Source: Scenedesmus sp. ARA3
Taxonomy: Eukaryota > Chlorophyta > Chlorophyceae > Sphaeropleales > Scenedesmaceae
Length of the DNA: 64,000 bases
Direction of reading: 5' to 3'
Assembly (NCBI GenBank): GCA_004335835.1
Contig: RWJK01001785.1
Coordinates: 1 to 64,000 of the forward strand
Shown here: in pieces, positions 1 to 64,000 of the stretch
Layout of the letters: each line of letters begins with the position of its first letter
Numbering within the stretch: the stretch's first letter is position 1
The notes under the pieces: model-generated
The model's input: the letters and a program-made list of their open reading frames with translations, nothing else
Database searches by the model: none
Told to the model about the DNA's origin: nothing
Position numbers and translations under genes: made by a program

Positions 1-58
<58 letters not shown>

Positions 59-150
59 TGAGAAGTGCCGAGTGCTGCCAGCTGGCTGGCTAGTACGGCG
101 CCTGGCAGCGGGGCGCTCCAGCCAAGGCCAGCTAGCATCACGGGCGACCT

Positions 151-196
<46 letters not shown>

Positions 197-288
197 TGAG
201 TAGTGCCCAGTGCTGCCAGCTGGCTTGCCAGCACAGCGCCTGGCAGGGGGGAGCTCCAGCCAAGGCCAGCCAGTATCACCGGGGACCT

Positions 289-323
<35 letters not shown>

Positions 324-503
324 CAGCAGCAGGCAGCAGCAGGGGTGAGTAGTGCCCAGTGCTGCCAGCTGGCTGGCCAGCACAGCGCCTGGCAGCGGGG
401 GAGCTCCAGCCGAGGCCAGCGAGCATCACCGGCGACCTGCGGCAGCAGCAGCAGCAGCAGTGATGCGGCAAGTGATTGCAGGCACACCACAGCAGCTGTT
501 TGA
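1..503 (-). repeat. Triplicated sacsin exon with (CTG)n acceptor tracts
   Basis: Three copies of a unit of roughly 150 bp lie at about 60-190, 195-345 and 345-470. On the minus strand each is a (CTG)n tract ending in CAG, then a partial exon reading LAGLGWS...GAVLASQLAALGT, which matches the sacsin segment after DLWLVSA. The copy nearest the 5' side (345-470) differs by one base in length in the G-run and is frameshifted; the other two are open. The array abuts position 1, so more copies may lie outside the window. Confidence 0.8.
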
Positions 504-810: not shown

Positions 811-3800
811 GCTGCTGTCCACGCCAGCTGCACCTTCGCTACCTGCTGCTTCAATGCCTGCAGTAGGCTGGTGCTGCTTGTCCTTCCAAGGCAGAGCAGG
901 GTCAGGTGCCACTGCAATAATGGGGCACCAGCAGGTGCGAGACAGCTCAGCCCACTGAGCAGCAATCAGCTGCTGCTCAGCCTGCTGCTGAGACTGCCCA
1001 GCGCCACCCGTAGCTGCTGCTGCACCCCCGCCATCTACTGCTGAAGACGAACCAAACTGGCCCCTGCTGCCCAGCTGCTGCTGCTGCTGCCCGCCTTTGC
1101 CGCCAATACCACCAAGCAAGTTCTGCATTGCTGAAAACAGCCCAGTGCCAGGCCGGCCTTTCTTGCCCTGCCTGCTGCTGCTGCTGCTGCTGCCGCCTGG
1201 GGTGCCTGGGTCGCTCTCACTGCTGCTGCCGTGCTGACTGTGCTGTGCTGTGGCGGCAGCGACGGCTGCTGCTGCTGCACTGGTGATGGCTGTGTGGCGC
1301 CCCACCAGGCGCTCCGCCTCTGTATCAAGGTAGGATAGCAGTGCCTGCAGGGTTGCAATAAAACCATCACATAAAGATGAGTAGATGTCTGTGATGCAGC
1401 ATGTTTCGAGCATCAATGGCAAGCGCGCCGTGTAAAGGTGCAAAGCAGGCTGCACACAGTCAACTTGGAGCACCTTGCTGCATTGCCGGGTGCTGCATGA
1501 ATGTTGCAGGCTGCAGTGATCACTACGCTCCTGTGCACGCTCAAACCCATACAAAACAACACGGCAGCAGCTTGTTCGCAAAGACCTGCATCCACAAGCA
1601 TTTGGCACGCAGAGAAACACAGCAGCTGCCTGCCATTCTGTGTGCTTCTCCACAGCAGCGCACCTTGCCGTGCGTCACAGGTTGATGGATAACATGGTGA
1701 TCAATAACATAATTAAGCTGAGACAGCACTTATTGTAACTTCAGCAGCGCACCTTGCCGCGCGCCACCGCCATGTCGCCGTCGCCCTCCCTGTCGGTCTT
1801 CTCCACGTATCGCGCCGCCAGCAGCATGTAAACAGCTGCCATCAAATCCACCAGAGACATAGGGTTGACACAAATCACAGTAGCTAGTTGTCCATACTGC
1901 GCTGCAGCGCACCTTGCCGCGCGCCACCGCCATGTCTCCATCGCCCTCCCTCGCAGTCTCAAAGTACACAATGTTCTCAACACAGCATTGCACTAATGCA
2001 GCTGGCTGGCTATGTTACTTCAGCGGCGCACCTTGCCGCGCGCCACCGCCATGTCCCCATCGCCCTCCCTTGCAGTTATCTATGATCAAATTCACCTAAT
2101 CACTGGGCAAGGCAAATTACAGCAGCTGGTTGTCCCAATTGCACTGCAGCACACCTTGCCGCGCGCCACCGCCATGTCGCCGTCGCCCTCCCTGTCGGTC
2201 TTCTCCACATCACTCCACACACCAAGCAGCACATAGACAGCTGCCATCAAAATCACCAGAGACATAGGGTAAGGCACATCACAGCAGCTAGGTGTCTATA
2301 CTGCACTGCAGCACACCGTGCCGCGCGCCACCGGTGGACGGACAAGACAAAGTGGTCATGATGATAAAACAGCAGTTGTGTGCTATGTAATTGCGCACCT
2401 TGCCACGCGCCACTGCCATGTCCCCATCGCCCTCCCTGGCCGTCTTCTCCACGTATCGCGCCGCCAGCAGCAGCGTGCCCAGGTCAGCACTGCCGCGCAG
2501 CCCCAGCTGCTGCAGCGCTGCTAGGCTGCTGAAGCCGTCATTCCCTTCATCCTCAACACCATAACCACCACCGTTGACACCAGCTGCAGCGGAATCTATT
2601 GAATCGCTTGCCGATGTTTCTGCTGTATTTGCTGTTTTTGCTGTGTTTGTAGCTGAGCAGAAGGCAGCAGCAGGGAAGCATGCCTCAGGGTCCAACAGCG
2701 CCACTAGCTCCGGTACCCGGGGGTCGTACAGCGTGCTTGGGGTGTGCAGCTGGCCCAAGCTGTTGGGCACAAACGGCGTCTGCAGTGGCAGTTTCAAGGG
2801 CAGGTGCAAGGCAAGCAGTGTTGTTTGATGGCAGAGCGACAAGTAGGTGATGCTTTTGAACTTTACATTAAACAAGTAGTACATGTTTTTGCATGCCTCA
2901 GGGTCCAGCAGTTCCACTAGCTCCGGCACCCCGGGGTCGTATAAGCGGCTGGGCGTGTGCAGCTGGCCCAAGCTGTTGGGCACAAACGGCGTCTGCAGTG
3001 GCAGACAAATGAAGGCAGGCGCAAGGTCAGCAGGTGCAGGGTGAGGTGCTGGTCAAAGAGGAAGGCGACCAGCAAACAAGGTCACACAGCTCCACCACTA
3101 GCTCTGGCACGCGCGGGTCGTATACGCGGCTGGGCGTGTGCAGCTGGCCCAGGCTGTTGGGCACAAGCGGCGTCTGCAGAGGCGGTAGAGTCACGGGCAG
3201 GGGCAAGAGGTGCAAGGACAGAATATGTGAAGCTGCAGCGGCACTGCCTGGTGATGCATCGTACATCTGCAGCAAGGCTTGACAGGGTGGAGCGCAGCAG
3301 ACAGCCTGCAACCGCCGTGCTGCTGATGTGGCACATGCACTTTTCATTGAGCTGTGTACACACATAGGGGCTTCTAGCCAACACTGGCGGCAGCCACTCC
3401 ACCTGCAGGTGGTATGCACATCTGACAAGGCTATGGGATGCATACGGGTTTCATGCTGATAAGAGTTCCATGCTGATAAGAATTCCATGCTGATACTGAC
3501 AGCAGCAGCATCACCAGCACTCAAAAACCCCACCTGCGCCAGCAGCTGCATGAAGCCCCTGTCCTGCTGCTGCAGCTCCGCCAGGCAGCGCAGCATGCGC
3601 AGCAAAGCAGCGTCCCTCACAGCCTTAGGCAGCAAGTGCAGCTGCGGCAACAGCACATCCCTGTACACAGCTGCAGCAGAAGGCGCTGCCACGCCTAGGT
3701 GGCGGGCCATGACTGTGGCCTCTTGCTCCGAAGATGCTTGCAGGAAACGGCTGTCTAGGGCTAAGGTATAGACACCTGCAAGCACAGCAGCACGGAGCAT

Positions 3801-6800
3801 CATCAGATGTGTGGTCAAGGAGCAAGCCAAGCAGTAGGATGCATCGCAGGAGAGCGTGCAGTGAATAGCATGTCATCACGCGGATGTGGTACAGCGCGAG
3901 CTTGCATTTGAGCAGCACGCCTGCTGCAGCACACATGAAGCAGCATATCCCCAGCTCTGCATTCAGCAGTTTCTATTCCTCCCAGCCTCACCTGCAGGAG
4001 CCAAGCAGCAGCCAGGCGACAAGGCAACTGTGCCTTGTTGTACTGCCTCCTGCTGTGCCTGCTGCCGCTCCTGCCCTTGCTCCAGGCCCCTCCGTGCACT
4101 AGCTGCTGGCACTGCCTGCTGCAGCGACTTGCTGTTGGCAAGCTCATACAGTGGCAGTTGCTGAACCACCAGCAGCAGCCCACGCATGCTGGCATCACCA
4201 CCAGCAGCAGCAGCACCAGCAGCACCGCTGAACCAGCGCTGCTGCAGCAGAAAGCCCCGTAAAATGCGTGCTTCATCCACAGTCAAGCTGCCTGCTACTT
4301 CTTCCCCTGACAGCTGCTGCTGCCTACTCAGCTGCTGCCCTGCTGCCACACTGGCACCCCATCCCGGTGCAGCACATACTGCAGCCGCAACACCTGCACC
4401 ACTCGGCCGATGCACGCAGTGCTGCAGCAGAGCCTCAAGCGGCAGTTCGAACCCCGCCGTATCCAGCACAAAACAGCCGAGCTTTTGCAGGACTGCCGCC
4501 AGTCCCTCTGGCCAGCTGTCACCACCAGCAGCAACCACAGCTGAGCTGGCATGTGGCTGCATGGGGACTAGTGTGCCGCCTTGCACAGGCAGCAGCGGCC
4601 AGCCGCATGAAAGCAGCAGCGGCAGGTCTGTGCGGCGCGCTGACAGCCACTGCCACAGGCCTTGCAGCCATTCCCTGTGCAGCGACAGCAGCAGCAGCAG
4701 CAGCATCAGCACTGGGGCAGCCAGCAGCGATTGGCACGACAGGCGCTAATACCTGCAGAAGCGTGGCTTGCAGGCGCATGAGCCCTGCAAGTTGCAGGTC
4801 TGAGTGCAACTGCAATCCAAGCCAAATGCGCTGCTCTTGCGTGTGTTACACGCTAGCTGAAGTTGAACACAAAAAGCGGAGCAAAACTCCTCTGTAGCTT
4901 TCAACAGGGCAGCAGACACCAACCTAACCCCCTCCACTGCTGCTACATGTATACGTTGGCCTCACCATGTGACAAGGGCACCGCCTGTGCCACTGCTCAG
5001 CGCTGCCTCCTGTGTGCTGCCATCTCCTGCAGCACCTTCTGCACCACCTGCTGCTGCTGCTGCCGCTGCTGCACTCTCCCATGCCACCGCCTTTGCATGC
5101 TGCCACGCATGCGGCAGCAGCTGCGGCAGCAGGCTTGAGGCCAGGTGCTGCACGCTGAGCAGCTGCAGGTTGAGGCAGCCGTAGCTGGCAGCCAGCGACA
5201 GCTTGGCAGTCAGGGCAGGGCCTAGCAACTCGTGATCCAGCAGCACGTGCTCTGCGTGGCAGTAGCAGCAGCAGCAGCAGTAGCAGCTCGTGATCCAGCA
5301 GCAGTAGCAGCCGCACTACAGCAGCAGTAGCAGCAGCCGGGGACACAGCAGCACGTGATCCAGAAGCAGGTGCCCTGCGCAGCAGCAAAGCACGTTGAGG
5401 GCAGCATTGCTTTCAGACGTAATCCAGATGTGATCGATTATAAGTGACGCCATGTGCAGTAGAGAGCACGTCCCGCACCGCCGCTTGCAGGTCAATAAAG
5501 ACTTACAACGATAGTACAATAATGATGCGGAGCACAGAGCAGTTCACTTTGATCAGCTGGCGGCTTACTTTGTGACCCCATCAGCAGCAACTCCAGCTCC
5601 TCTGTCACAACAAACAACAGCTGCTGCTGCTGCTGCTGCTGGTTCTGCGCCTTGCTTTTTCCACCGCTATATTCCGCTACTTCTGCCACTGAGCCATCTG
5701 CCAGTGGCAGCAGCCGCAGCCGCAGCAGCTGCTGGCATGCTGCAGCGCCAGCTGACAGGTCCACATCAGCAAGGCAGTATGCCAGTAATGGCACTAGCTG
5801 CGTGTCTCGCTGCAGGATGGTCATGCGGTCAGGGTGTGCTGCTGCTGCTGTGCGTGCTGCTGCTGGTGTGCATGACTGAGGCAGCTCCGGCTGCAGAAAG
5901 AAGACAGTTGCAAGAGAGAACAAAGCAGCATCAAGCAGACAACAGTCAATAAAAGTGGGCAATGAGCAAGATGACGCCTGCAGGACAATGACTGCAGTGA
6001 GACTGAGGCATTTCCGGCTGCAGAAAGGAGACAGTTGGTAAACAGCAGCAGGCCCCACAGAGTGATATCACACTGGCAGAATAAGGTGGCAGCAGCAACG
6101 GAAGCCGGCTGAAGGAAGAAGACAGTTACAAGAGAGAACCAGGAAACACTGTGAGGTGAGAACAACCTGCAGTGCACTGCCAGCTGTGCACTTGGCGGCC
6201 CACTAAGCCGCTGCTCGTGCCTGCACTTCTTGGTAAGCAGCACCGTCATCCACTGGCCCAAGGCGGTTTTCATTTACATATTGCACGCAGGCAGCTCATA
6301 CCAACACAACAGCAAAGCTATCAGCATGCAACAGCCGCACCAGCAGCAGTAGCAGTAGCAGCACAGCCCACACCACATCTCACCAGGTGCTTCTGCATCA
6401 TCAGCAGCACGCCAGCAGGCATGTCCAGCAGAGGCATGTCCAGCAGCAGCAGCGCCTGACCCAACGGCCCCAGCCCATCACTGCTGCTGCTGCTGCTGCT
6501 GCTGCTCTCACTGCTGGCATTCTGCTGAGGTGCATGCTGCAGCCAGCCCTGCTGCGCCTCGCCAGCCGTCAGCAAGTGGAACGGCTGCTGCTGCAGGCAC
6601 GCTGCATCAGGGAAAATGCACTGATCGATGGCTAGCCAACTGCCGCCATGTGCTGCTGTCCACAGCAGGCGTTTGTTGGGTAGGTGGCCGTACAGCTGGC
6701 GCACTATCCCTTGCCAGGGCTCAGGGGCATCTGTGCTGGGCCACAGCCTGCGCAGCAATCAGGGAACAACCATGTTAAGTGGTTTTGGTTTCAATCCTGT

Positions 6801-7281
6801 GGCTTTACAGCTGACGCACTGTGCCCTGCCAGGGCTCTGGGGCATCTGTGGCTGGCCACAGCCTGCACAGCACGCAGGGGACAGCAGGTGAGTGCTACAC
6901 GCTACACACAACAAGTGTACAAAGTATAGTATGTCGGCCAGTATGAGGGTTGCAGTTGGTGGTGTGTGGATGTGGTGTTTAATAAGTTTCACTGCTGTAA
7001 GCAAGTACAAAACAATACCATACAAACACTTAAAGGACCATCCCACACACAGGAGGACAGGTTCAGTTGCAAATACACTGAAGTTCAAGTCAAACTCACA
7101 CAGCTGCCATTTGTTAGTGGCCAGAAAGCCAGCATAGCCGCTGAAAAGGGAGATACAACAAACAGCGCACAGCCCACCTGGCATACTGCGTCCCGTGGCC
7201 CAGCAGCTGTGCAGCAGCAGCCAGCAGGTCCAAGTAGGCAGGGGCCACCACCAGCTGCAGCAGCGCCTCGTTCCACTGGCC

Positions 7282-7322
<41 letters not shown>

Positions 7323-10300
7323 TGCGGCAGACGACAGTGCGGTGGTTCAGTCGGCTGGGTGGCAGAACTGCTGGCACCAGCAAGGGATACAGCTAACTTC
7401 AATGCAGCTAGCAACACCCTAACAAGCTGAAAACCAACACACGAACACACATGTGGCAGTCACGCAAGCCATGGCGAGCACCCAGCAGGTGCCAAGCAGC
7501 AGATCCTTGCCGCACACACCTGCGCTCTCAGGCGCCCTGCTCCCGCCATGTCGCTGCCGTGCCACACGTCGCGCCTGTTGCTGCTCAGCTCAAAGTAGCC
7601 GTTGACGTGCAGCGGCAGCCCAGTGGACACAGGTAGCGGCAGGAAGCAGAACGCGCGGCCTGCCAGCTGGCCCTGCTGCTGCTGCTGCTCAGCGGCACTG
7701 CTGCTGCTGCTGCTTATTTCAGCAGCGACAGCGCCCCAAGCTACCAGCGGCACCTGGAACTGCTTGCTGAGTTCAGCTGCCATTGACAGCAGCTGCTGCT
7801 GGCCGCGGCGCTGACACACCAGGAAGCTGAGGGACTGTGCTGTGCTGGTGTTTGCATCCCTGCATGGCAGCATGGCAGAATTGCAGCAACCAACTAAATG
7901 CCGGACGCTGGCTTACGCCCTAGTGTGTTTCGTTGCCAGCTGCAACACCCGCTGACGCCGGCATTGCCACGCAGCCTGCACGACACTAGTACCAATCCAA
8001 AGGCAAATGCAAGCGCGCGCATACTCTTGCAGAGCACAAGGCACCGTCAGATTGCTGTCAGCCACAGGGTGGGGCGCAGCATTACAGCAATCAGGTGCCA
8101 TCCACACCAGCTCTCACATAACACAATGCAGCCCCTGCGCACTCACCGTATGGCCATATCCAGTCGGTAAGTGCCCGCCACCACCTCATCAGCAGGCGCT
8201 GAAGCAGCATGCAGGAACAGCGCCCGCTGCTGCAGCACTGCTTCAGTTGCATTTGCAACGCTGCAGCTGAACAGCAGCTGCGGCTGTGCCTGGCCCGGCA
8301 GGAGCTGCAGCACTTCAATGCTGCGGATGCTCTTCAGGAACAGCAGCACCAGCTGCACCTCCTGGCGCAGGTCATCAAAGAGTGCAGAGATGGACTCTGG
8401 CGTGTACACCTGGCAGCAGCAGCAGCAGCAGCAGCAGTACACCGAAACAGTTAGGATGGGTACCCTTCATGCCACTGCACAGACGCAAGCACCCTGCTTC
8501 CACTGCCAACTGTCCACGTCGAAAGCAGTTGTGGAGAACGAGCCCTCGCTAAGCTCGCACTGCTAGAAGGCCCTGCCCCCACAATGCCTTCCCACTGCCT
8601 GCTGACCAGAGGATCACAGCTGCTGGGCTGCCATGCGCGACTGGTGTGCATACCTGCTTGGATATGGTGCTTGCGTCTGCCTGTGCCTGCATGCGCAGCG
8701 GGAACCTGAACAGCGTCCCTGGGTAGTAGCTGGCTGTGTTGCAGCCGAAGAGCTGGTAGGGTGCCGCCTGGTGGGCTAGTGACGGCTGCAGCGCATGCTG
8801 CACAAAGTTGATCTTCTTGCCGGGGTTTGCTGCAGTCAAACGGAGTGAGAGTAAAGCAACAAACAAACAATCGATAAAGTGGGCTGGAAAAGAGAGGAGG
8901 TGGACTGGAGGTGGTGTGCACAGGTCCGCACGGCAGTGTGTGCAGTGTCAGAGGCAGCTGGTGCTGCTGATCTGCTGTATAGTTGTCATAGCCCAAAGGT
9001 TTTTCCAAAGCTGCTTCCTGCACTGCAAGATTTTCTAAAGCTGCTTCCTGCACTGCAAGATAGCTGCATTGCTGTGTTGTGCTATGCCTGCGCACCTGCT
9101 GAGATAGCTGGCAAGTGCTTGCAGTGGGGGTCAAAAATCACCTGCGCAGACAAACAATAAAGGCACTGTCAACACACTGGTCCTCTTGCGTAACATGTGC
9201 ATGCCGCCATGATGTGCACACGTGTAGCAATGCCAGGAGCGGCAAGCAACACGGGCATGCAGCACTGCTGGTGATGCTGGACACCACCAAAGCAAACAGT
9301 GGAGATGCGCTGCTATTGAGTGAGCTCCATTGCGCTCCATTTCGCACCAGGTGCTCGCCAGACACGAAGCTGGGCACATCAGTCAAGTGGTAGATGGCGT
9401 TAAAGCCCACGCTGCACATACACAACAGCACATACACACAGGAATGTTGGTTGACGGCATCGACGCAAGGTTAAAAGGGCTGATAGGGGAGGTCTGGCGG
9501 GCAAAATCGAGGCAGCCGCAACAAAGATTCTCACATAAGGCTGCCGCCAACGCTGCGCGTTGCGCAGCTCAAACAAACACCACAGCTGCTGCACAACGCT
9601 GCCACTATGAACTGACTGCTGCTATGCCAGCCGCCACCTCAGCCACACCCTGCACCAGCTGTGTCACCAGCCGCTGTGTCACCACACCGCCACTCACCCA
9701 AACCTGCCACCTAATGCTGCCGGCTGCCTGGCACAAGCACAACGCTGCCGCTGTCTGAAGACTGCTGCTGTGCTATTTGTCAACTCCAAACGCACCCCGC
9801 ACCAGCTGTGTGCCCCCTGCAGCCACTCACCCAAACCTGCCGGTCTTGCCCAGCTGCTCTCGCTTCTTGCTGTCTCCGATCCTGCTGATGGACTCAAAGT
9901 CCTTCTCGCTGAACACGCCATCGTTGAAGGCCAGCAGTGCAGGGCCCTGGAAAGCGCGCATTGCAGGAGACAGCACCGCATCTGCAGCAGTGCAGCAGCA
10001 GGGCAGCAGCCACACAGCAGCAAGCCAGCAGCAATGAGCGCTCAGCATGCTCTCGTTGAAGCTGAGAAGTGCAGGGCCCTGGAATGCGCGCATGGTGGGA
10101 GACAGCACCGCCTCAGCAAGCAGCGCAGCAGCAGAACAGCAGCCACACTGCAGCAAGACAGCAGCAATCAGTGCGAAGCATGCTGTCGCAGCGCCACAGA
10201 GCAACCCATCGCCAGCAGCATACTGTGCTGCCAGTGCTGCTGCCTTATGGTGTGTTGCTCGCATCTGCCTGCGCTGCATTCTACCCTAGCAGGCATGCAT

Positions 10301-16243: not shown

Positions 16244-16381
16244 TCACTCATCCAGGTCAATCTCATGCGCATCATACTGCCCCAACAGCTGCATCATGGC
16301 AGCACGGCCCTCCTCACCTCCCGGCACCACACCATCCCCTGCTGCTGCTGCTGCTGCTGCTGCTTGCTGACTGACCTGTAC

Positions 16382-16430
<49 letters not shown>

Positions 16431-38471: not shown

Positions 38472-39039
38472 ACAGCAGCAGCAGCAGCACAGGAGTGCAT
38501 GCAGCACCCAGTTCCTCACATGCCGTCCACACCAAACCTTGCCAGCGCCATGCATGGCGCTACTACTGTCAGTCACCAGCAAGTGGCTGCGCTTGCCGCA
38601 TTCTTCAAAGCATTCATCGTGCGCACATGCATGCTCACTGCTGCTGCAGCAGCTGCACTACCCGCGTAGATGTTATACATGGTGGTGCCATACACCGCCA
38701 TGGCTGCGCTGCACTGCTCCCTAGCAGCAGCTACACCAGCTGCATACATACTCCTTGCTGCAAGCATGCATCCTCAAGACCCCATCGAGTCGCAGTCCCC
38801 CAGTGACACAAAGCCGGCAACAATTATGATATTATACCAACAACAGCCTAACATTCCCCGTACGACACACCTGTGGGTCTGAGCCGCTGCTGCGGTGCAG
38901 CCCCTTGCCCTGCAGCGCATCATTCAGCAGGCCCAGGAAGGCGTTGAATGCTGCTGTGGGCAGGTAGGTGAAGGTGGTGCCGCTGTCCAGCACAGCACCG
39001 TAGCCCTGGGCGTACTCGCCCTGCGGCAGCCAGGCAAAC

Positions 39040-39075
<36 letters not shown>

Positions 39076-39157
39076 CTAGTCAGAACACAACAAGAGGGGA
39101 AGGAGGCACAGCACTGTAGCCCTTGGCGAACTCGCCCTGCGGCAGCCAGGCGAATAT

Positions 39158-39206
<49 letters not shown>

Positions 39207-50182: not shown

Positions 50183-53100
50183 CGGCTCAGTCCACGCTGG
50201 AGGGCCTGTCCTTTGACGTGTTGCTGCTGGATGAGAGCAGCCAGATGACGGAGCCCACCAGCCTGGTGCCGCTGCTGCGGGCCAAGCCCAGGTGAGCCTG
50301 CTGCTGCCGCTGCTGCTGCTGCTGCTGCGGGTGATCCTGCATGTCAACAGCCAGGGTAGGGGCAGGTCCTGGCACTCTGGGCTGCGCACTTGTCAGGTCA
50401 AGGCCAAGGAGGCCCAGACACTGGCTCGCAATGCGGCAGTGTTGGACTCGACACATGGTGCAGCGAGTGCAGCTGTGTGGTGCCCCATATAGTGTGTGCG
50501 GATTCATAGTGACGCTCTGGGTAGCCACCGGTCCTTTCCACCATAGGCCTACATGACGGAAACGTAAGCGCATCTTCAAGTATATGAAAATACTCCCTGA
50601 GACACCTGCTGCGCTGCTTTGCCTCTTGTATTGCCAGCTTCTTGATTGCTGCTGGGGACCCCTGCCAGCTGCCACCCGTGCTGGCAAGCCCCACTGGCGT
50701 CACCCCAGCAGCAGCTGGCAGCAGCAGCAGCGGCAGGTCCCAGGAGCAGCAGCAGCAGGGCATGGTGTATGGCCTGCTGCGGCCGCTGTTTGTGCGGCTG
50801 ACCCACTTGGGGCACAAAGAGCACCTGCTAACTCACCAGTACAGGTGCGGCTGTTGATCAACACAGCTCTTATATAGAGCAATATGTGCTGCAGTTGCTG
50901 TCGACTTTTTCAGATTTACAAAAGCTGCCTTATGTACAGCGCATGTGCATTTGCAATGCTCCATGCTTTCCACTTGTGCTACTCCCACCAGGCCCCCGTG
51001 ACAACCTGTGCCACTACGCTGGCTGCAACATCCGCCGCCTGCTGCACCAGGTGCCACCCTACACTGTCCATGCTCAGCAACCGCCACTTCTACAACAGCA
51101 TGCTCGTCAACGGCGTCAGCGAGCAGCAGCGCAGCGCTGCTGTGCCGGGCCTGCCACCGCTGGTGTTCTGCGACTGCCTGGGCGGGCGCAGCCAGGCTGC
51201 TGAGGGTGGCGGCCGCAGCAGCGTAAACAGAAGCGAGGCGCAGCTGGTGGTGCAGCTGGTGCTGGCGCTGCTGAACTGCCGGCAGCAGCAGCAGCAGCAG
51301 CAGCAGCGCAGGTTGAAGTGTGGCACAGCAAAAACTGGCTGGGAGGAGGATGAGGAGGAAGAGGAGCCGGCGGGTCATGATTGTGATGAGTCGCAAGATG
51401 ATGATGGGGAGGTGGAATGTGCGCCCGCTGTGCCGGCTGCGCAGCTGGGCGTGATCTGCTTCTTCAGGGGCCAGGCCAACCTCATACGGCAGCTGCTGGC
51501 AGCAGGTGAGATGGCTGGCAGTTGCAGGGCAACAATGCAGCAGCTGATAAGGGTGCAGAGAAGCATTGTTGTCTGTTTGCAAGCTGCCTCGGTGCCTTGG
51601 CAGTGATCGGTTGCTTACTTCAGCAACATCAGGCAGCTGCTGGCAGCAGGTGAGGACGTCCGTGAACCAGCCAGTTGCTGCAGAGCAGCAGGTCAGCAGC
51701 AGACTACAGCGCAGTGAAGCCTTGAGGTGCGGTTTCAGGCAGCTCCAGCCGTCTAGCCGTATGCATCATGCAGATGACAGCTAGTGTGTGGCTTGGTGAC
51801 GCCTGCTGCCACGTAGTGCAGGCTGACAAGGCAGCTGGTGCCTGTGCAGCCTCATGCTGTGTTCGTGACGATACATGTCGTCGGTGAAATAAGCAGGTGC
51901 CGCTGGTGGCATCCATCGGCAACCGACTCGCTGCATGCCTGTGTGTGGCCCTGCCTGCAGAGTCAAGTTGTGCTGGCGCAGCAGACGTGCAGGTGGCCAC
52001 TGTGGACTCCTTCCAGGTGGGTGCAGCCAGCTGGCAACAGTGACCTTGTGTTGCGCAGCCATTGTGTGCAGCACCTAGTAGCGCTGAACAGCACAGCAGC
52101 CAGCAAAGGTGCAGCGCATGACAGAAGCAGTGGTGCAGGTGGCCACTGTGGATTCCTTCCAGGTGGGTGCAGCCAGCTGGCAACATGTTGTACAGTGACC
52201 TTTTGTTGCGCAGCCCATGTGTGCAGCACCTAGTAGCGATGACAGCTCAGCAGCCAGCGATGGTGCAGCGCATGACAGAAGCAGTGGTGCAGGTGGCTAC
52301 TGTGGACTCCCTCCAGGTGGGTGCAGCGAGACAGACAGCCAATGCCAGACGCCTTGTGATTTGCAGGTGCTGCCCGGCAGAGCTGTGCAGGTGCTGGTCA
52401 TGCATGCCATGCTTGCGCTGTAGACGCTGTTTTGTGTTGTTGTTGTTGAGAGCGCTGCAGGCATGATACATGTGATTCGTCTAGCCGCGATGCCCTGCGC
52501 TGTTCTATCGGCAAGCAAGGTTCGTGCTCTCGTGTGTGTCTCATACTGCTGCTGCCGCCGCTGCTGCTGCTGCTGCTGTTGCTGCCAGGGTGCTGAGAAG
52601 GAGGTGGTGCTGCTGGCCACCACCACCACAAACAGCAGCAGCGAGTTCTGTAGCGACGGCGCGCGACTCAACGTGGCGCTGACACGCGCAAAGCGGTGCG
52701 TGCCGGCTCCGACACAGTTGCACAATTGCTCCCTGCCCTCAACCTCCCTAGCCCACGCAGCTGCGCAATCCCCAATTACTGTCACCTTTTGTAAATGCTA
52801 GCGCTAGCAACATCATTGTGCAATGCAGGCGGCAGCAGCAGTTCGCATCTCATTGCAAAAGGGTCCCGTGAGCTGCCTGTGCCCTGTGTCAACAGAGTCA
52901 CTGCCCTAGCGTGCATGCAAGCAGGCGAGCGTCCACCTCTGGTGGGCATGCTCCACTGAGATATCGGCAAACATGTGTGCGCGTGTCTGCGTGTTTGCTG
53001 CCGTAGGCACCTGATCGTGGTGGGTGCTGGCGAGGTGCTGTCCCAGGCACGCAGCCCTGTACTGCGTGACCTGGTGAAGGCCTGCAAGGCTGGCGCAGGC

Positions 53101-53220: not shown

Positions 53221-54345
53221 CACAGACGGCATTTCAGTTGATTGAAGGCAGGTGAAAGCAGTTGATTTCCTGCAGAGCTGCAGCATGCTGTACATGGGCA
53301 GCACTTACATCAAAGCAGTAAACTCCCGTTGGAACAGAAATGGGCGCGGGGCTGCTGGCGATGTTGCTGTGGCTGTTTGGTGATTCAACTATGTTGGGAG
53401 ATGTGTGCGGCCCGCACTGAGTGTGGAAGCCTCTCTGGCTTGCGTCTTGTTACACCAAGTGCTGGCTAGCCGTGATCTGAGCGTGCAACCAGCAGCAACA
53501 CCAACGGTACCCAGGCAACCGTTATCGACACGCACGCACACCATGTGGCCTTAGTGGCCAGCACATCAGCCTCAAGCCCGCCACCAAGCACACCGATTGG
53601 GTTTGATGGTTGTAAATTAACATCAGCCAGCATAGAGCCAGCATAGAGCCAGGTGCTGCAGCACGTGCAGCAATTGCAAACTGCACGGCCGTTTGCAAAC
53701 TGCACGGCCGTGCTGCGGCAGCACCATTTTTGTGCCCTGATCAAACCACCAAGGGCCGCAGCAGCTTGCAGGCTGAAAGCGTGCCTGAAGCCGACTCGTA
53801 TGTGCCGCACATCGTGTGCGGCACATCACACACTGACTAGGCACACTGTGCCGTAGTACGGCTGGCTCACTGGCAGCAGCAGCAACAGCCGCGTAGTCAC
53901 AAACACCAGCTCTGTGCATCAACCACATGTGTTCACACCAAGAATTCCATGCTCACTGCTTATAGACAAGCGTTGCTGTCCAACGTTAACTGTGCAGCAT
54001 GATGCCACCAATGACGCAAACAGTTCATGCAGATGCAGAGTGCACAGCGACCATTACACAACTAAGCAGACAGCAATGTAAAAACAAAGCGCACACACGT
54101 ATGTCACCTGCGACTGTGTCACGTAAATCACCATTGCTGCATTGTAACACGCACATGCCCACCGCCCCGTGGCACAAAGCCACAGCAGCGACTTACGACT
54201 CTCACAGGTCAGGCCAGGAACTTCCCACCAGCAGTGCCCTGCGAACTTCCTACCAGCAGGGCAGGAACTCGAGCTCCATGAGCGCCTTGCCGGACTTCAC
54301 ACTAGCAGGTCACGGACTTCCTACCACCAGCGCGCTCTGAACTTC
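53221..54345. other. Convergent intergenic region (helicase 3' / synaptotagmin-like 3')
   Basis: No gene is seen. The right end (54210-54345) contains two or three partial copies of the last coding bases of the synaptotagmin-like gene (gaacttcctaccag.agggc), lying 3' of its stop. A 20-bp direct repeat (ttgcaaactgcacggccgt) lies near 53685-53710. Confidence 0.6.
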
Positions 54346-54861
54346 CTACCAGTAGGGCAGGAACTCCAGCTCCAGCTCAATGCGCGCCTTGCCGGACTTC
54401 CCGCCGATGTTGAAGTCATCGTACACGTACCCCACGTCCTCCTCCTTGCTCCAGCGGCTGACCTGCACGTTCTGGATGATGTCGCGCACCGCCATGGTGA
54501 AGCGCCCCAGCTCATCATCAATGGTCATGGCAGGCTCCATGACGCTCACCACCAACGTGTCCTGTAAAGGAAGAGATGAGGCAGCAGCAGCAGCAGGTGT
54601 TGGTGGTGATGGTGTTCAATGGTACCGCAGGCTTGATGGCTACAGCCAGCGCGTCCTGCAACACAGGAGCGCGTGTTCAATGCTGAAGCTGCCCAGCTCA
54701 TCATCGATGGTCATGGCTGGCTCCATAACTGATTCCACAAGCGTGTCCTGTAAAGGAATAAATGAGGCAGCAGCACCAGCAGCAGCAGCAGGTGTTGGTG
54801 GTGATACTGTTCAATGGTACCGCAGGCTTGATGGCCACAGCCAGCGCATCCTGCAAGATTG

Positions 54862-54906: not shown

Positions 54907-55948
54907 GTAGCAGTGGGGTTTGATGCTGAAGCGGCTCCGCTTTCTTGCATAGTTATGGTGGGCACCATCATGGCCACCAGCGTAAATGAAAAGGAGGCAG
55001 CAGCAGCAGGAGCAAGTGCTAACAGTGTTTATAGTAGTGCAGAACCTGGCAAACTCCGCACCTTGGCGCTGACGTCGTACAGCGTGAACTTGTTCTGGTT
55101 GGACCAGCGCGGCGAGGCGTTGCGCGCGATGGTGGGCGTCTTGCAGACCTGCTTGTAGCTGGCCTTCTTTGCCTCTGCCTTGTCTGCCTTGTCAGTCGGC
55201 TCCAGCTTCACCTGCAAGCCAGGGCAGCAGCAGGGTTTGGGATTGTGCAGGTGCGGTGCGGGGTTTAAAGCCGCTAAAGGTGTAGCTGGCGTTCTTTGCC
55301 TCTGCTTTGTCTGCCTTGTCAGTCGGCTCCAGCTTCACCTGCAAGCCAGGGCAGCAGCAGGGTTTGGGATTGTGCAGGTGCGGTGCGGGGTTTAAAGCCG
55401 CTAAAGGTGTAGCTGGCGTTCTTTGCCTCTGCTTTGTCTGCCTTGTCGGTGGGCTCCAGCTTCACCTGCAGGCAGTGGCAGTAGCGTGTTTTAGCAGCGT
55501 GCATACATGACGGGGTTAAAAGCAGCCACTGAAGCGTAGCTGGCCTTCTTTGCCTCTGCCTTGTCTGCCTTGTCAGTGGGCTCCAGCCTCACCTGCAGGC
55601 AGCGGCAGCAGCAGGCAGCAGGGTTTAACACGGTGAGTGTGGGTTAGGTTTCAACAGGCACTCAATTGCAGGCTGAGTGCTTCTGCCTTGTCTGCCTTGT
55701 CAGTGGNNNNNNNNNNNNNNNNNNNNNNNNNNNNNNNNNNNNNNNNNNNNNNNNNNNNNNNNNNNNNNNNNNNNNNNNNNNNNNNNNNNNNNNNNNNNNN
55801 NNNNNNNNNNNNNNNNNNNNNNNNNNNNNNNNNNNNNNNNNNNNNNNNNNNNNNNNNNNNNNNNNNNNNNNNNNNNNNNNNNNNNNNNNNNNNNNNNNNN
55901 NNNNNNNNNNNNNNNNNNNNNNNNNNNNNNNNNNNNNNNNNNNNNNNN

Positions 55949-56008: not shown

Positions 56009-59000
56009 CAAGGCACAGCCCAGAAGCTCAGCGACTTCCAACACGTGCTGGCACACACTTGCAACTTGTCCTGTGGGTTGCAAGGCAAGGATCTGTCAAG
56101 CAAGTGAACGTGAACACATCATGCAAAGCTTGAGGTTCTACTGGCAGCAGCGTATGTTCACCTGCGATATTGTCCAGTGCCCTGTACTGCAGGCCCAGCT
56201 TGATCCAGCCCTCACCCAGACCCTGCATGCAGCAGCAGCAGCAGCAGTGGCAGCAATGTTGGCAGAAGCAGAGATACACAGTGCCAAAAGTTCCCAACTG
56301 CAGGTGAATGTCACGGAGCACCTTTGAACACCTCCCACTGATCCTTGTAGCAAGTGCCAGCAGCTGTTGCGCTCACCGGAACCTCCAGGTTGGTCCATTC
56401 GACCTTGCAGTGGCGCCCATGTTACACCACATGCAAATCGCAGCAGGCACACGCCCACTTGCAACAGTAGGAGATTTAGCAACCAAATTGCCACCCACCG
56501 GCCTCTTCAGGTTGGTCCAATCGCCCTTGCCCAGCAGCAGCCACAGCTCATCCACTTGCAACACGTCTGTCAGCCCCACACCACGCCTGTGCTTGCCGTT
56601 CTCTCATCATGCACAGAAGAGCACATGCTCAAAGCGGCACGCATGCTTGTGATGCGGAGACACTTGCACATTTTCACCACATACAGGTTACTGCAGGCAA
56701 CCACTCAAACTTGACATGCTAGGGATGAACGATTGCCACCCACCGGCCCCTCCAGGTTGGTCCACTCGCCCTTGCCCAGCGGCAGCCACAGCTCATCCTC
56801 CAGGCCCTCCTCACTGATGAACTGAGCCAGCGGGATGCCTGCACGGCCCATGAACTCACGCCCACCCTGCAGCGCAAAGTCCAACACAGCAGTGCAAGGT
56901 GTAAGAGCAACCAAGACATGCTGACGGATGCGATGAGCGCCAGAGGTGTGGTGCGCTACTCTAAAACGGCGAGTTGCCAGCAAGGCCCATGACTCACGCC
57001 CACCCTGCAGCGTGAAGTTCAGTGTGCAGAGTCCTATGGTGTGAGGAGTTCAGCGAGCGGTGCCAGGGTGTGAAGTTCAGCGACATCCGCGTGTCAGGGT
57101 GTGGGGTTCAGCGGGCAATGATCCTTCAACAAAAAAACATTGTCGCAATCCATTGCAGCACCTTGCAACGCAGCTGCATATAGCTGCACGCCGCGCGGCA
57201 GCAGCAGCAGCAGCAGCAGCAGCGCCAGCAGCAGCAAGAGCAGGATTCAGCCCATATCCTCACCTCCAGTGACGCTGCGCTCTTCAGGCCTGCAAAGCTT
57301 GTCACGTTGACTGCATCGTAGTCAAACATCTCCAGCCGCAGCACCGTGTCCTTCTCCAGCACTGGCAGGTACTTCACCTGCAGTATGGTCAAACATTGGT
57401 CAAACATTGGCCACATGGTCAAACATTGGTCGACATCGAGGAACAGCGGGAACGTGCAGCTAAAGCTGCTTGACTGCTATGCAGAAGCACCAGCGGTGTG
57501 ACGCTGTGCCTGATGCTGCGCTCCCAAGATGCTCAGCAGGCTGCACGATGGTGACCAAGTACAAGTGCAGGGCGCAACGCCCTCTGATTCATCGGCAAAG
57601 AACTGCAGCACGGTGCCCCACCTCGTTCCGCTCTGGTGTGAGGCTGTTGCTGATAACGCGCGTGGCGCGCATGCATGGTATGTCGCCAGCCTGCTTGCGT
57701 GCATGCAATTGTGCTAACTATGTCAACATGCACGCACCTCGTTCCACTCGGGCGCTAGGTTGTTGTTGATCACGCGTGTGGTGCGCATGTCGTCCTTGGT
57801 GGTGAACAGCTCCACGAATGGATCCGACTTGCCTGCGGGCGCACAAAAAACCGGAGCTTTATTGGAATGTTTCCACACACAGATCAGTGCATCTTGATCC
57901 AATCTTTACTTTGTCCTTGGTGGTGAACAGCTCCACAAAGGGGTCGCTCTTGCCTGCAGGGACACCACATGCCACACATTTAAAGCACAGTCCTGTCAAT
58001 AACAGCACATGGTACAAGCGGCTGTCGGGCGCTGCCATGTTGCCGTACAATGGCGTACAATGGCGTACAATAGCGTACAATGGCCACTGTGCAGTGTTGT
58101 GCACCCAGCGTGCCGGCGATGACCTCTTTGGCCTGGACAGGTGGACCAGATCTTCACAAATACACATTATCACCTTCTATCCAAGGGGTTTATCCAAGTG
58201 TGGTGTAGCCTTTGAGCTTCTTGGCTTTGATGATGTGCATCATGTTGTACCTGACACTTACAAATGACACATTACTCACCTAGCGTGTCGTAGGCCTTGA
58301 GCTCCTTGGCCTGGATCACGTGCACTTTGATCACGCCCTTGGGCCGCCCGTTGAGCCGCTCCACCTCCAGGTCCACCTCGGGGTCGTTGGCTGGCATCAC
58401 ACCGTCCCACGACAGCAGCGGCACCTGCGGCAATACGCAATCATTGTGATTAAAAGTGCGGCATGCTTGATGGTGTGTTACTGGGTCGTTGGCAGGCATG
58501 CCGCCACCCCAGGACAGCAGCAGCACCTGCGGCAGGGTGACAAAGATTGCGGTCAAATGCCAGAAAAACAGCGCATTGGTGAGTTGCCCCCGCTCCACCT
58601 CCAGGTCCACCTCAGGGTCATTCGCAGGCATCAGACCGCCCCAGGACAGCAGTGGCACCAGCAGCGGAAAGCAACAAGTTCGAAGCAACATGCTTGTGGA
58701 TGAGTTGCCGCATGACATAGACTTACAACACAGATACAGCCAGTCCCGCCTCGCCAGCCAGGCTTACCGCGAGCTTGCTGGGCAACAGCAAACGTATGTG
58801 GCATGCTGATGCGAGTACGCCGAGCACACAACCCCTTGATCTACACCCAGGAAACCCAGCCAGCACGCATGTGGTCATTATCATTATTGTACAGCCCCGC
58901 CCCGTCAGCCGCATGCACTCACCGTGAGGCGGCTGGGCCACAGATACCAGCCCACAATCATGTTGATGATCATGTCCACAAAGGCCCGGATGGGCGCGGT

Positions 59001-61954: not shown

Positions 61955-61989
<35 letters not shown>

Positions 61990-62114
61990 GTGTTGCACGC
62001 TGGCGCGCAGCACGCGCCGCACCTCCATCTTCTCCCGCTCCGTGTACGTGATCCATGAGGGCAGCGTGCCCAGCAGGTACTGGCAGCCCTTCAGGCCCGG
62101 GTCCATGGACAGCT

Positions 62115-62162
<48 letters not shown>

Positions 62163-62813
62163 CAGCAGCAGCAGCAGCAGCAAGTGAGCAGCAGATGATG
62201 CAGAGGAACGCGATGTTAGGGCAAGGAATGCCGCTCAAGCAGCAGTGGGAAGGTTTGGGATGCAACCAAGAGCACGGATGTTGCGTCAGTGCTGTTGCCT
62301 AAGGTTAGTGGCTTGATGTGACATGGAAGGAAAACGAGACATACGGCAACACACAAGGGATGCTGTGCGGCAATGCTGGCGGACGCTGGCGCAGGTCTGG
62401 CGTTGCTGCTGTCCTGCAAGCACTGTGTGTCGGCGCCAGCTGCTGCTCACCACTTGCTGGTACTGCTGCTTGGACTTGACGTTCTTGTAGTACAGGAAGG
62501 TGTAGAGCACCCCCACCATCATGCCTAGCCCAGTAGCTCCTCCTGTCATGCCCAGGTGTGGCTTCCACCAGGCCAGGAACAGCAGCAGCATTGTGGCCCA
62601 GGCCCCAGCCACACCGGCCAGCAGCTGTCCCACGCTGAGCATGCGGTGCGTTGGCAGGCCCACTGTAACACGGCGCTGCTTCTTGCGCCATGCTTGGCAC
62701 GGATCAGTTGGCTCGGGCTGTTCCTTGCCATCTACCTTGTCAGGCCAGGCCTTGACGCCAGTTGGCGGGAGCAGGACCTTCTGCTCGTCCCGCAGCGTTT
62801 TTTGGCGGTACAT
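54346..62813 (-). CDS. Extended-synaptotagmin-like protein (TM hairpin, SMP, C2 domains)
   Basis: This class tethers ER to plasma membrane and transfers lipids. Approximate exons: 62813-62451, 62113-62023, 61748-61648, 60599-60527, 60221-60122, 59760-59665, 59411-59340, 59008-58922, 58427-58285, 57830-57740, 57378-57268, 56872-56752, 56225-56160, 55212-55062 and 54561-54346. Order: basic N-terminus, two hydrophobic segments (AWATMLLLFLAWW; GLGMMVGVLYTFLYY), SMP domain (WFNRMLEEMWPYYDRG, IKSTVEPIIESF, ISIAIDLP, RPLVDKIPGF), C2A (IKVHVIQAKELKAYD, SDPFVELFTTKDD, VINNNLAPEWNE, LRLEMFDYD), then a divergent second C2-like region (NASPRWSNQNKFTLYD) and the C-terminus ELELEFLPYW. Ca-binding Asp of C2A appear partly kept (SDPF, DYD). 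The start is the ATG after a possible acceptor, so an extra 5' exon is possible. Nearly every intron contains partial exon copies. Confidence 0.9.
54505..54860 (-). repeat. Acceptor-side duplicates of the last synaptotagmin-like exon
   Basis: ctttacag then DTLVVSVMEPAMTIDDELG at 54561 is duplicated as DTLVESVMEPAMTIDDELG at about 54750-54690. Surrounding sequence (ggtaccgcaggcttgatggc) is also duplicated at about 54620 and 54820. The upstream copy loses the RFTMAVRDI continuation. Confidence 0.88.
55140..55706 (-). repeat. Acceptor-side array (at least 4 copies) running into an assembly gap
   Basis: Intron end plus exon start VKLEPTDKADKAEAKKASYK occurs with acceptors at about 55212, 55339, 55468 and 55592, period about 126 bp. 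A fifth copy starts at the gap edge (tctgccttgtcagtgg). Only the first (55212) continues to QVCKTPTIARN. Copies drift at the intron side more than at the exon side. Confidence 0.93.
55707..55948. other. Assembly gap (242 N) inside the tandem array
   Basis: The N run is bounded on the left by another copy of the 126-bp unit and on the right by a long pure CAG tract. This suggests the assembler failed on this repeat. Confidence 1.
55949..56006. repeat. Pure (CAG)n tract at gap edge, at least 19 triplets
   Basis: An uninterrupted triplet tract abuts the N gap, so its true length is unknown. In gene direction it is (CTG)n within the intron between the last C2-region exons. Confidence 0.95.
56370..56800 (-). 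repeat. Donor-side triplication of an SYT-like exon end
   Basis: ELWLPLGKGEWTNLEGP plus donor (gtgggtgg) at 56800-56740 recurs at about 56555-56500 (LWLLLGKGDWTNLKRP, gtgggtgg) and in short form at 56400-56375. All copies lie in the downstream intron. Confidence 0.88.
57380..57435. repeat. Short tandem repeat ggtcaaacatt
   Basis: An 11-bp word occurs four times within about 50 bp of an SYT-like intron. Confidence 0.8.
57620..57965 (-). repeat. Both ends of the C2A calcium-loop exon duplicated
   Basis: The exon at about 57830-57740 reads SDPFVELFTTKDD...RVINNNLAPEWNEV. Its start is copied upstream at about 57958-57915 (SDPFVELFTTKDK), and its end is copied downstream at about 57690-57620 (RVISNSLTPERNEV). 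Confidence 0.9.
58040..58085. repeat. 11-bp tandem repeat (gtacaatggc)
   Basis: Four near-identical units lie head to tail in an SYT-like intron. Confidence 0.85.
58380..58670 (-). repeat. Acceptor-side triplication of the C2A first exon
   Basis: VPLLSWDGVMPANDPEVDLEVER at 58427 is preceded in gene direction by partial copies at about 58533 (VLLLSWGGGMPANDP) and 58665 (LLSWGGLMPANDPEVDLEV). Only 58427 continues into LNGRPKGVIKVHV. Confidence 0.93.
59764..59835. repeat. Tandem near-palindromic repeat (gtgtgaagttcacag)
   Basis: Three units of about 25 bp lie directly upstream, in gene direction, of an SYT-like exon acceptor. Each contains the near-palindrome TGTGAA(G/C)TTCACA. Confidence 0.8.
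60870..61000. repeat. 33-bp minisatellite in SYT-like intron, 4 copies
   Basis: taccactg occurs at 60881, 60913, 60947 and 60979 within a unit resembling ttggcgccaaagataccact. Confidence 0.88.
61475..61670 (-). repeat. Donor-side duplicate of SMP exon end
   Basis: EPIIESFR/gtgcgg at about 61670-61640 recurs as EPVTESFR/gtacgg at about 61510-61475 in the following intron. Between them lies an unusual AT-rich stretch. Confidence 0.75.
61585..61636. other. AT-rich island in GC-rich intron
   Basis: About 50 bp made almost only of A and T words (attaattg, aaattaaatcaattaat), unlike anything nearby. It has no coding potential; the origin is unknown. Confidence 0.7.
61749..61772. repeat. (CTG)n acceptor tract of SMP exon
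   Basis: Eight triplets end in CAG exactly at the acceptor of the WFNRMLEEMW exon. Confidence 0.8.
62114..62160. repeat. (CTG)n acceptor tract of SYT-like exon 2
   Basis: About 15 triplets, in gene direction (CTG)n, end directly at the acceptor of the exon reading LSMDPGLKGCQYLLGTLP. Confidence 0.8.
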
Positions 62814-64000
62814 CGCAGCGTCCTACAGCCTCCAATGGCCAGATACAGCAGCTGCTGCTTGTGCCGAGTGGCACCTAGTGAAGAATGGGGTTCGTTGAGA
62901 GGAGAGGCTGCAGCAGCGATCAGGGCTTCAAATAGTTTTACGTCTTGCGTAAAAGACAATGAGACATGTTTACGGCTGCCTCTCCTGCTACACAGAGATC
63001 GAGTGTCACCCAAGCCAAACGCAGCTCACGCCAGAGGCCCTGCACCATGCAAGCATAACCGGATGTGTGGCAGAGATGACTGGGACAGTACAGTCGATTG
63101 GTTCGTGTGCTTGTTTTGACGGAGTGTGTCAATACCATGCGGAGGGTGAGTCAGCTAACACACAAGGCATTGACTGCACTACCAATCTGAGCTGCTGTGT
63201 ACTGGGTTGTGCAAGCTGCGCTCTGACAAGTTGAACTATCAAGTGAAGGTGTCTGAGAGTGTTAGCCTGTTTCGTTTCCGTGATTGAAGCCATTGTACAT
63301 TGCACCTTCACCTCTGGAGCTGCTGGGGCCCGGAGTGGTGCCTCTACTGCAACCACACCAACAAACCTGTGCTATTTGGAGCCTTCCAAAACAGCAGTAT
63401 CGATTTTAGCAGTTGATCGACAGACACCGTGTTTGACGAATACCCACCATGCTGGTGACCCTGCCCACATACACTGCTGCAGCAGTGGCAGTGGTTGGAA
63501 ACCTGCCAAAACCCCTGGTTGCCACCAAAGCCGATCAGCAAAGCAAGCGCTAGTCAGATTAACGCTTATGCTTACGCAGCAACACCCCATCGCTAGAGCT
63601 GAATGTGCGGTTGTAGCTGTGCTTCGTTTTTCCAACGTCACTCTGCAGCTTGCGTGAAGCTGACATTGTGCAACAAAACTCCTGTTCTTGATTTGGATAA
63701 AAATAATATATCGCAGGAGTAGCATCTGCGACGCATACTTCCACTCAGGGCAGACTGAACTTCAGGCCACACAGTACCTGTTCTTTCTTGCTGGTCCATT
63801 GCAGCAGGCAGCTTGCACAAGCAAGCCGCGCGCGAGCTTGACATTCAAAACGCTAGTTAGTTCAACAGCAGCTAGGCGGCAGCAGCTGCAATGGGCGGGT
63901 GGCTCAGCAGAGACAGCAGCAGCACGCTCAGCACAGCAGACGCACATCATCTGGGGCGCAAGTGCAAGACCCTTGCCACAGCATACAGTAAATGCCATAA
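62814..64000. other. Region upstream of the synaptotagmin-like gene, no gene recognised
   Basis: Presumed promoter side of the SYT-like gene, possibly with an extra 5' exon near 62825-62880. The remaining open frames are short and lack recognisable domains. Confidence 0.4.

What the first reader, a model, noticed from the sequence alone, without database searches (positions are those of the whole stretch)
1..64000. Pervasive tandem duplications that straddle exon-intron junctions
I count at least 20 independent arrays in at least seven genes of this 64-kb window (sacsin, CXXCXGXG, BCD1, Pho4, aspartic protease, helicase, SYT-like). Units are about 80-200 bp, with 2-7 copies. Arrays at an acceptor leave partial copies only upstream of the intact exon; arrays at a donor leave them only downstream. 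That polarity is what one expects if duplications arise everywhere and only those spanning a splice junction are tolerated, since one copy stays intact and the rest become intron. It would be a route for intron growth and for making pseudo-exons or new cassette exons. I know of no named description of such density.
Basis: partly seen in the sequence, partly recalled or inferred. Interest (0 to 1): 0.88.

Follow-up and report, generated by a model that had tools for sequence, protein, structure and literature searches.

The report
Exon-end echoes fill alga introns
In a green alga close to Tetradesmus obliquus, long introns are long largely because short DNA blocks spanning an exon-intron border were repeated in tandem, leaving several near-perfect extra copies of the exon end and its splice site inside the intron.

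Summary
The window holds 26 local tandem-repeat clusters. I placed 16 on a coding border in six genes: 15 on a splice junction, one on a stop codon. One more is ambiguous, nine unassigned. In introns defined by homology (59 kinesin/CCT introns plus 13 of the window's SYT-like gene, which is array-rich), 24 of 72 carry partial copies of the flanking exon end: 0 of 42 introns up to 338 bp, 18 of 20 above 400 bp. In the 59, arrays account for about two thirds of the excess length of the 18 introns that have them. T. obliquus proteins follow the outermost junctions, with one exception. Neutral decay alone does not predict this. I favour array turnover by unequal exchange hinged in the exon part, with direct use of copies in splicing as rival. 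No RNA evidence from this strain. Ten paper searches found single cases, not such density.

The parts
1734..2472 (-). Donor array, sacsin-like gene: working donor at about 2398 plus 4 downstream copies (alignments start 190-572 bp on)
   Evidence: gene label by reading
2678..3207 (-). Acceptor array, sacsin-like gene: working exon start at about 2779, 2 upstream copies
   Evidence: gene label by reading, piece 3030-3872 had no Pfam hit
6684..6883 (-). Acceptor array, sacsin-like gene: exon start at about 6747, 1 copy
   Evidence: gene label by reading
9907..10188 (-). Acceptor array in a sacsin-domain exon, start at about 9981, 1 copy
   Evidence: Pfam SACS
17929..18463 (-). Acceptor array, BCD1 gene: exon start at about 18029, 2 copies
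   Evidence: Pfam BCD1
26203..26366 (-). Donor array, PHO4 transporter: donor at about 26325, 1 copy
   Evidence: Pfam PHO4 in a nearby open frame
38990..39304 (-). Acceptor array, aspartyl protease: exon start at about 39020; 1 copy aligned, a second weaker one by eye
   Evidence: Pfam TAXi_C weak, Asp/TAXi_N upstream
48798..49621 (+). Donor array, helicase: donor at about 48887, 6 copies
   Evidence: Pfam AAA_12 downstream
51980..52330 (+). Three copies of a helicase exon end plus donor; working copy not settled
54210..54400 (-). Array across the stop codon/3'UTR border of the SYT-like gene (not a splice site), 1 copy
54494..54856 (-). Acceptor array of SYT-like intron 14 (500 bp), 1 copy
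55154..55706 (-). Acceptor array of SYT-like gene: 3 copies plus a fragment at the edge of an assembly gap
56487..56798 (-). Donor array of SYT-like intron 12 (521 bp), 2 copies
56830..57021 (-). Acceptor array of SYT-like intron 11 (397 bp), 1 copy
57619..57789 (-). Donor array of SYT-like intron 10 (360 bp), 1 copy
57792..57960 (-). Acceptor array of SYT-like intron 9 (447 bp), 1 copy
58356..58665 (-). Acceptor array of SYT-like intron 8 (498 bp), 2 copies

Best explanation
Shown: local tandem duplications of roughly 100-250 bp that straddle the border between coding and non-coding DNA have accumulated, gene by gene, and account for most of the extra length of long introns in the sample. Protein evidence indicates that mature mRNA normally joins the outermost junctions (first donor, last acceptor), so inner copies are intron. 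Inferred (about 45%): the arrays keep expanding and contracting by unequal exchange or slippage hinged in the exon-derived part. Spacers behind each copy drift and are shuffled as modules, while exon part and splice consensus stay usable because any contraction makes a former copy part of the working junction and exposes its defects.
For: Length: 0 of 42 introns of 338 bp or less have copies, 18 of 20 above 400 bp do (13 of the 72 are from the array-rich SYT-like gene). Median 758 bp with copies and 244 bp without in the 59-intron set; taking arrays out removes 6,668 of 9,968 bp of excess over 244 bp. Local origin: two array-rich stretches (4.7 and 8 kb) show no second copy of themselves in the assembly, only CAG-rich and other short matches. 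Working junctions: T. obliquus P0121 follows the outer junctions of the window's SYT-like gene where exons could be placed; P0001 equals my CCT5 model at 517 of 519 residues plus one 15-residue insertion. Preservation: at 42 donor copies identity to the working site is .98 at +1, +2 and +5 but .64 at +4.60 at +6 and .36-.52 at +7 to +12; of 16 donor arrays 10 changed at +4 and 10 at +6, but 1 each at +1, +2 and +5 and 3 at +3 (Fisher P 6e-8 for +4/+6 against +1/+2/+5). Donor copies have a median of 10.5 bits against 10.1 for working sites; 0.2% of other intronic GTs reach that. Turnover: near-identical exon parts sit on unlike spacers, and in one array the working site's spacer matches the third copy's, not the adjacent one's. 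Changes private to single copies are nearly even over codon positions (19/12/24), working-exon and shared ones strongly third-position (8/5/56); P 2e-5.
Against: No RNA reads and no second strain's DNA. Copies within an array are related, so P values are optimistic. Two introns above 400 bp lack copies at the score used (618 bp; 1,052 bp). Seven of 18 array introns stay long after arrays are taken out, and the 18 as a set still exceed array-free introns (P 0.014). Of 15 size changes counted in copies 14 are not multiples of three, though some +1/-1 pairs cancel, and one old copy near 58240 has lost its donor, so constraint is incomplete. Acceptor copies are slightly weaker than working acceptors (8.9 against 9.4 bits, P 0.16). 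No contraction rate was measured; the exposure argument is theory. Fast-evolving spacers could explain part of the contrast between exon and intron parts.
Confidence: 0.65

Rival explanations
1. The copies are used directly in splicing: decoy donors and acceptors, alternative or cassette exon pieces, or regulated unproductive splicing, and selection keeps them for that.
For: Donor copies carry splice sites as strong as the working ones. One copy is present as an in-frame 15-residue insertion in a T. obliquus CCT5 record, and four of six copies of that array in this genome have an AG that would define a 45-nt exon. Two relatives' CCT5 records, one named like a transcript, appear to run into the same intron and stop.
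Against: No clear excess of in-frame partner sites at the outer borders of copies (15 of 43 against 30% chance, 9 of 34 against 20%). 14 of 15 size changes in copies are not multiples of three, some cancelling. Private changes in copies other than the farthest are not clearly biased to third positions (24 of 55, P 0.07). A decoy role would not require preserved codons.
Confidence: 0.25
2. Neutral relics: each copy is a snapshot of the working junction at the time it was duplicated and has decayed freely since; the working exon's own synonymous drift causes the third-position bias.
For: Frame-shifting size changes, one decayed copy, near-even codon positions of private changes. Changes private to the working exon fall 2/1/25 over codon positions 1/2/3 (sum).
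Against: With equal clocks, free positions should differ about twice as much as positions held only in the working copy; observed 36-40% at +4 and +6 against 2% at +1, +2, +5. Where the spacer is alignable, codon positions 1 and 2 differ at .046 and .036 (copy against working, 24 pairs) with the spacer at .144, below the one-half bound. Some copies with 4-7% exon divergence have unlike spacers.
Confidence: 0.2
3. The duplications are generated at junctions by a transcription- or splicing-linked lesion, rather than being random events filtered by tolerance.
For: 24 of 24 arrays touch a junction against 12.6 expected; clustering by gene.
Against: Preservation bias inflates the excess; of introns with spacer-detectable copies 7 of 8 are junction arrays. 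One array straddles a stop codon, where no splicing happens. The HSP90 match table suggests a copy in one gene (C1029) and none in the gene with the best matches (C194) (no letters read).
Confidence: 0.2
4. Assembly artefact: variants of one junction strung together by the assembler.
For: Copies look like functional alleles; assembly gaps lie next to one array (55707-55948) and within region C1492.
Against: Spacer-to-mid-exon joins exist in no single-copy template; periods are fairly regular; a T. obliquus protein record holds a segment matching an array copy but for one residue; no second, allelic stretch was found for the two stretches searched.
Confidence: 0.04

Closest known systems
Junction-crossing tandem duplication in potato RdRp (PMC4974935; abstract and introduction read)
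   Same: A tandem duplication crosses an intron-exon boundary and the copy keeps the inherited splice signals.
   Different: One case, and it creates a new intron with a new donor. Here arrays of 2-7 copies sit inside existing introns at many junctions, with no new intron position seen.
[quoted passage not shown]
   Same: Tandem genomic duplication inside a gene without change to the protein.
   Different: Duplicated units contain pre-existing intron as well as exon; intron number does not rise.
Tandem exon duplication with mutually exclusive splicing (PMC9741552, PMC9013439; search listing only)
   Same: Exon-derived copies lie in tandem within the gene.
   Different: Here only the exon end next to one splice site is copied, usually without the second splice site.
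Introner elements (recalled)
   Same: They lengthen or add introns in algae.
   Different: Introners are dispersed families; the two stretches searched here have no such family.

Membership tests
Intron gain by AGGT tandem duplication | Unit is exonic and a new intron lies between the copies | tested here: not met
   Units include intron spacer, and the arrays lie within introns bounded by the outer junctions
Intron gain by AGGT tandem duplication | Intron absent at that position in relatives | not tested
   I had no relatives' DNA
Junction-crossing tandem duplication (potato type) | Duplicated segment crosses an intron-exon boundary | tested here: met
   24 of 24 arrays in 59 introns touch a junction; one intron-only repeat was seen by another test (intron 47)
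Junction-crossing tandem duplication (potato type) | Duplication creates a new intron | tested here: not met
   SYT-like: T. obliquus protein is continuous over the outer junctions. CCT5: the same, save one 15-residue insertion. Only these two genes were checked this way
Mutually exclusive tandem exons | Copies carry both an acceptor and a donor, in frame | tested here: not met
   No clear excess of in-frame partner sites as a class; some copies could qualify
Introner or transposon | Dispersed copies elsewhere in the genome | tested here: not met
   Two stretches find themselves, CAG-rich matches and a few short ones at 75-79%; other arrays were not searched
Minisatellite arrays | Head-to-tail copies of one unit, uniform decay | tested here: inconclusive
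   Head-to-tail with fairly regular spacing is met; decay is not uniform across the unit

The most novel reading that the evidence does not exclude
Intron growth here comes with built-in redundancy: each array is a self-renewing stock of interchangeable, functional splice junctions. Array contraction regularly promotes a former copy to be the working junction, so selection indirectly polices codons and splice signals inside introns that are never translated, and the spliceosome must choose the outermost of several equally strong sites.
Probability: 0.35. Interest if true: 0.86.

Novelty: new variant of a known kind. Interest (0 to 1): 0.72.

Why it matters
How a spliceosome tells a working site from equally good decoys, and how introns lengthen, are both old questions. 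This genome supplies natural arrays in which one intron has up to seven donor sites with the same exon context and similar strength, and only the outermost gives the expected protein. That makes position and timing rules of splice-site choice directly testable. The same loci show a traceable route by which introns lengthen, and they may also mislead gene annotation in this group of algae.

Tried and rejected
CAG/CTG repeats as cause: several arrays hold such runs, but the printed units of CCT5 intron 10, C1184 intron 36 and C1492 array 42 do not, so they are not required. Dispersed elements: no support for the two stretches searched. Recursive splicing through copies whose exon starts with GT: 4 of 22 acceptor arrays; not pursued. 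Nested removal of inner donor-acceptor pairs: cannot work for donor-only arrays (reasoning). Coding use of copies: an early third-position signal weakened once private changes were separated. High expression as driver: CCT 15 of 25 introns against kinesin 3 of 34, but CCT region C837 has none and no expression data were at hand; left open.

Rows dropped: one search called 65 of 66 contiguous exon pairs (90 adjacent pairs in all) and set aside 5 redundant matches; one search kept 59 by score and fit. Two doubtful copies of array 42 are but left out. The stop-codon array's copy is counted and left out. A frame error for array 42 was mended. The orientation error was mended. The cross-gene control gave 12 hits among 59 pairs, so later calls used stricter scores; the exon-side control gave 0 hits at all three scores, the intron-side control 1 hit at the two lower scores. 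Changes private to the farthest copy of each array (14/15/32 over codon positions) were kept out of the contrast. In the 59-intron set the junctions come from queries that included 6 intron bases; the exon-only queries found similar numbers (28 and 21).
Full report
What the genome is. The window is contig C1378 of an 87.27-Mb assembly in 1,567 contigs, 48-61% G+C in 2-kb steps. A CCT5 model built from another contig matches the T. obliquus protein P0001 at 517 of 519 residues (the first two differ) apart from one 15-residue insertion. The window's SYT-like gene matches T. obliquus P0121 exon by exon, most working exons at 88-100%; rows at 58, 79 and 84% run past exon ends. I take it to be T. 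obliquus or a very close relative; the strain is unknown.

The arrays. Masked self-comparison gives 26 clusters in the window. At 16 borders I aligned the copies to the working copy. Fifteen are splice junctions and one is the stop codon/3'UTR border of the SYT-like gene. These borders were picked because they had copies, so they say nothing about frequency.

A sample chosen without regard to arrays. Kinesin and CCT genes were chosen by Pfam family. From exon matches continuous in the profile I called 65 introns, kept 59, and obtained the splice consensus CAG|GTGAG and CTGCAG|G. Exon-end queries of 60 bp found 28 donor-side copies in 11 introns and 21 acceptor-side copies in 13 introns, with 0 hits in other genes' introns. 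Intron-side queries of equal length found 20, with 1 control hit. With longer queries 18 of 59 introns carry copies, in 24 arrays with 49 copies, two of them doubtful. Adding 13 placed introns of the SYT-like gene, which is array-rich and so not a neutral addition, makes 24 of 72.

Intron length. None of 42 introns up to 338 bp has copies; 18 of 20 above 400 bp do. In the 59-intron set arrays make up 6,668 of 9,968 bp (67%) by which the 18 array introns exceed 244 bp, the median of array-free introns. Taking them out brings 11 of 18 to between 164 and 312 bp; seven stay longer, and the set still exceeds array-free introns (P 0.014). In the CCT5 gene I read exon copies beside most exons, and the clusters inside the gene at junctions.

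Where duplications fall. All 24 arrays in the 59 introns touch a junction; random placement of units of that size predicts 12.6. Since spacers decay faster than exon parts, intron-only duplications vanish from view sooner. Of 8 introns with copies visible from the intron side, 7 are junction arrays and one (intron 47) is intron-only. Array introns cluster by gene (P 0.0008): 16, 12, 11 and 8 clusters in four CCT regions, none in CCT region C837 and in 18 of 23 kinesin regions, and 3, 0, 0, 0, 3 in five 6-kb stretches that I picked arbitrarily.

Polarity. In a tandem duplication across an acceptor the last copy is continuous with the rest of the exon; across a donor the first is. Partial copies on one side only follow from this, whatever the cause.

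Decay is uneven. Copies match the working exon at about 90% over 45 bp, while the adjoining intron is near 53% by a rough alignment, against about 32-36% for unrelated pairs. Position by position at 42 donor copies identity is .98 at +1.98 at +2.86 at +3.64 at +4.98 at +5.60 at +6 and .36-.52 at +7 to +12. At 34 acceptor copies it is .97.88.97 and .88 at -1 to -4 and .41-.62 at -8 to -16. Counted by array, 10 of 16 donor arrays changed at +4 and 10 at +6, but one each at +1, +2 and +5 and three at +3 (P 6e-8 for +4/+6 against +1/+2/+5). Donor copies are as strong as working donors (median 10.5 against 10.1 bits), and 28 of 42 equal or exceed their own working site. Acceptor copies are slightly weaker (8.9 against 9.4 bits, P 0.16), 13 of 34 equal or exceed their own.

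Codon pattern. Copy against working exon, 46/40/164 differences fall at codon positions 1/2/3 of about 975 sites each in the sample, and 40/35/130 of about 595 each in the window. Where the spacer is alignable, third positions (.152) evolve like the spacer (.144) and positions 1 and 2 at .046 and .036 (24 pairs); copy-to-copy rates are .079/.041/.138 with spacer .168 (27 pairs). For pairs with unalignable spacers (52 and 48) the rates are .049/.043/.198 and .077/.057/.194. A free copy of a constrained exon should show at least half the spacer rate at positions 1 and 2. Yet changes private to one copy, the farthest copy excluded, are 19/12/24 (third-position excess P 0.07), against 8/5/56 for working-exon and shared changes (P 2e-5 for the contrast); those of the farthest copies are 14/15/32. 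One in-frame stop in 950 codons in the sample and 3 in 571 in the window. Size changes are few, 15, and 14 of them are not multiples of three, though some +1/-1 pairs cancel. So copies look recently released from constraint, or weakly constrained, rather than long neutral or translated.

Turnover. In array 35 (C1184) near-identical exon parts sit on several unlike spacers; the working site's spacer matches the third copy's while copies 1 and 2 share another. Exchange hinged in the exon part gives this; simple one-by-one duplication from the working site does not.

Are copies exons? Outer borders of copies show no clear excess of an in-frame AG or GT. In T. obliquus P0001, however, CCT5 has a 15-residue insertion (VEQYAMRAFADNMVR) at the exon-10 donor array; the segment DNMVRVEQYAMRAFA so formed matches array copy 3 of this genome but for one residue. 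This may be a real extra exon or an annotation error. Records of two relatives, one named like a transcript, appear to read into the same intron and stop.

Dispersal. The SYT-like stretch and the C1184 stretch have no second copy in the assembly. Their other matches are short: CAG-rich runs, a piece of SYT-like intron 12 (about window 56567-56666) that matches three other contigs at 75-79%, and a few more. The tool scores only its best candidates and skips simple repeats.

Literature. Ten searches listed no description of such density; the library holds open-licence papers only. The nearest is one potato gene (PMC4974935, abstract and introduction read); PMC2891723 (abstract) treats intron sliding and exonic duplications in Drosophila. 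PMC12571836 has no occurrence of 'intron' or 'tandem duplicat' in its main text, and PMC7955037 none of 'intron' or 'splic' (term searches only). PMC5966456 gives a mean intron length of 462 bp for T. obliquus and 230-302 bp for four other algae (passage).

Limits. Pairs within arrays are not independent. The mechanism of origin is not shown.

Noticed in passing
window 58180-58255 (-): A piece resembling the end of SYT-like exon 9 (MHIIKAKKLKGYTTLG against VHVIQAKELKAYDTLG) lies just after the working donor with no donor of its own: an old decayed copy or a diverged exon.
   Followed up: partly
window 61465-61540 (-): In the 1,052-bp SYT-like intron 3 a copy of the exon end (LEPVTESFR) is flanked by CTGCAG and GTACGG, so it has both splice sites, but its 26 nt would shift the frame. 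It fell below the score used for counting.
   Followed up: partly
window 56567-56666 (-): About 100 bp of SYT-like intron 12 match three other contigs (C1127, C1010, C1201) at 75-79%; a possible dispersed repeat.
   Followed up: no
G000:C1029:8117-8670: HSP90 match table shows a second partial match (positions 387-415) just downstream of an exon match (370-417), as expected for a donor array (no letters read).
   Followed up: no
G000:C837:14588-21500: A CCT gene with no clusters in 6.9 kb, in contrast to other CCT genes; reason unknown.
   Followed up: no
window 1-460, 15141-16812, 18588-18948: (CAG)n/(CTG)n-rich stretches, some reading as runs of Q, A, S or C in open frames.
   Followed up: no
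window 55707-55948: A run of N (assembly gap) lies directly beside the acceptor array at 55154-55706; part of the SYT-like protein (about residues 514-541) was not placed between 56148 and 55211.
   Followed up: no
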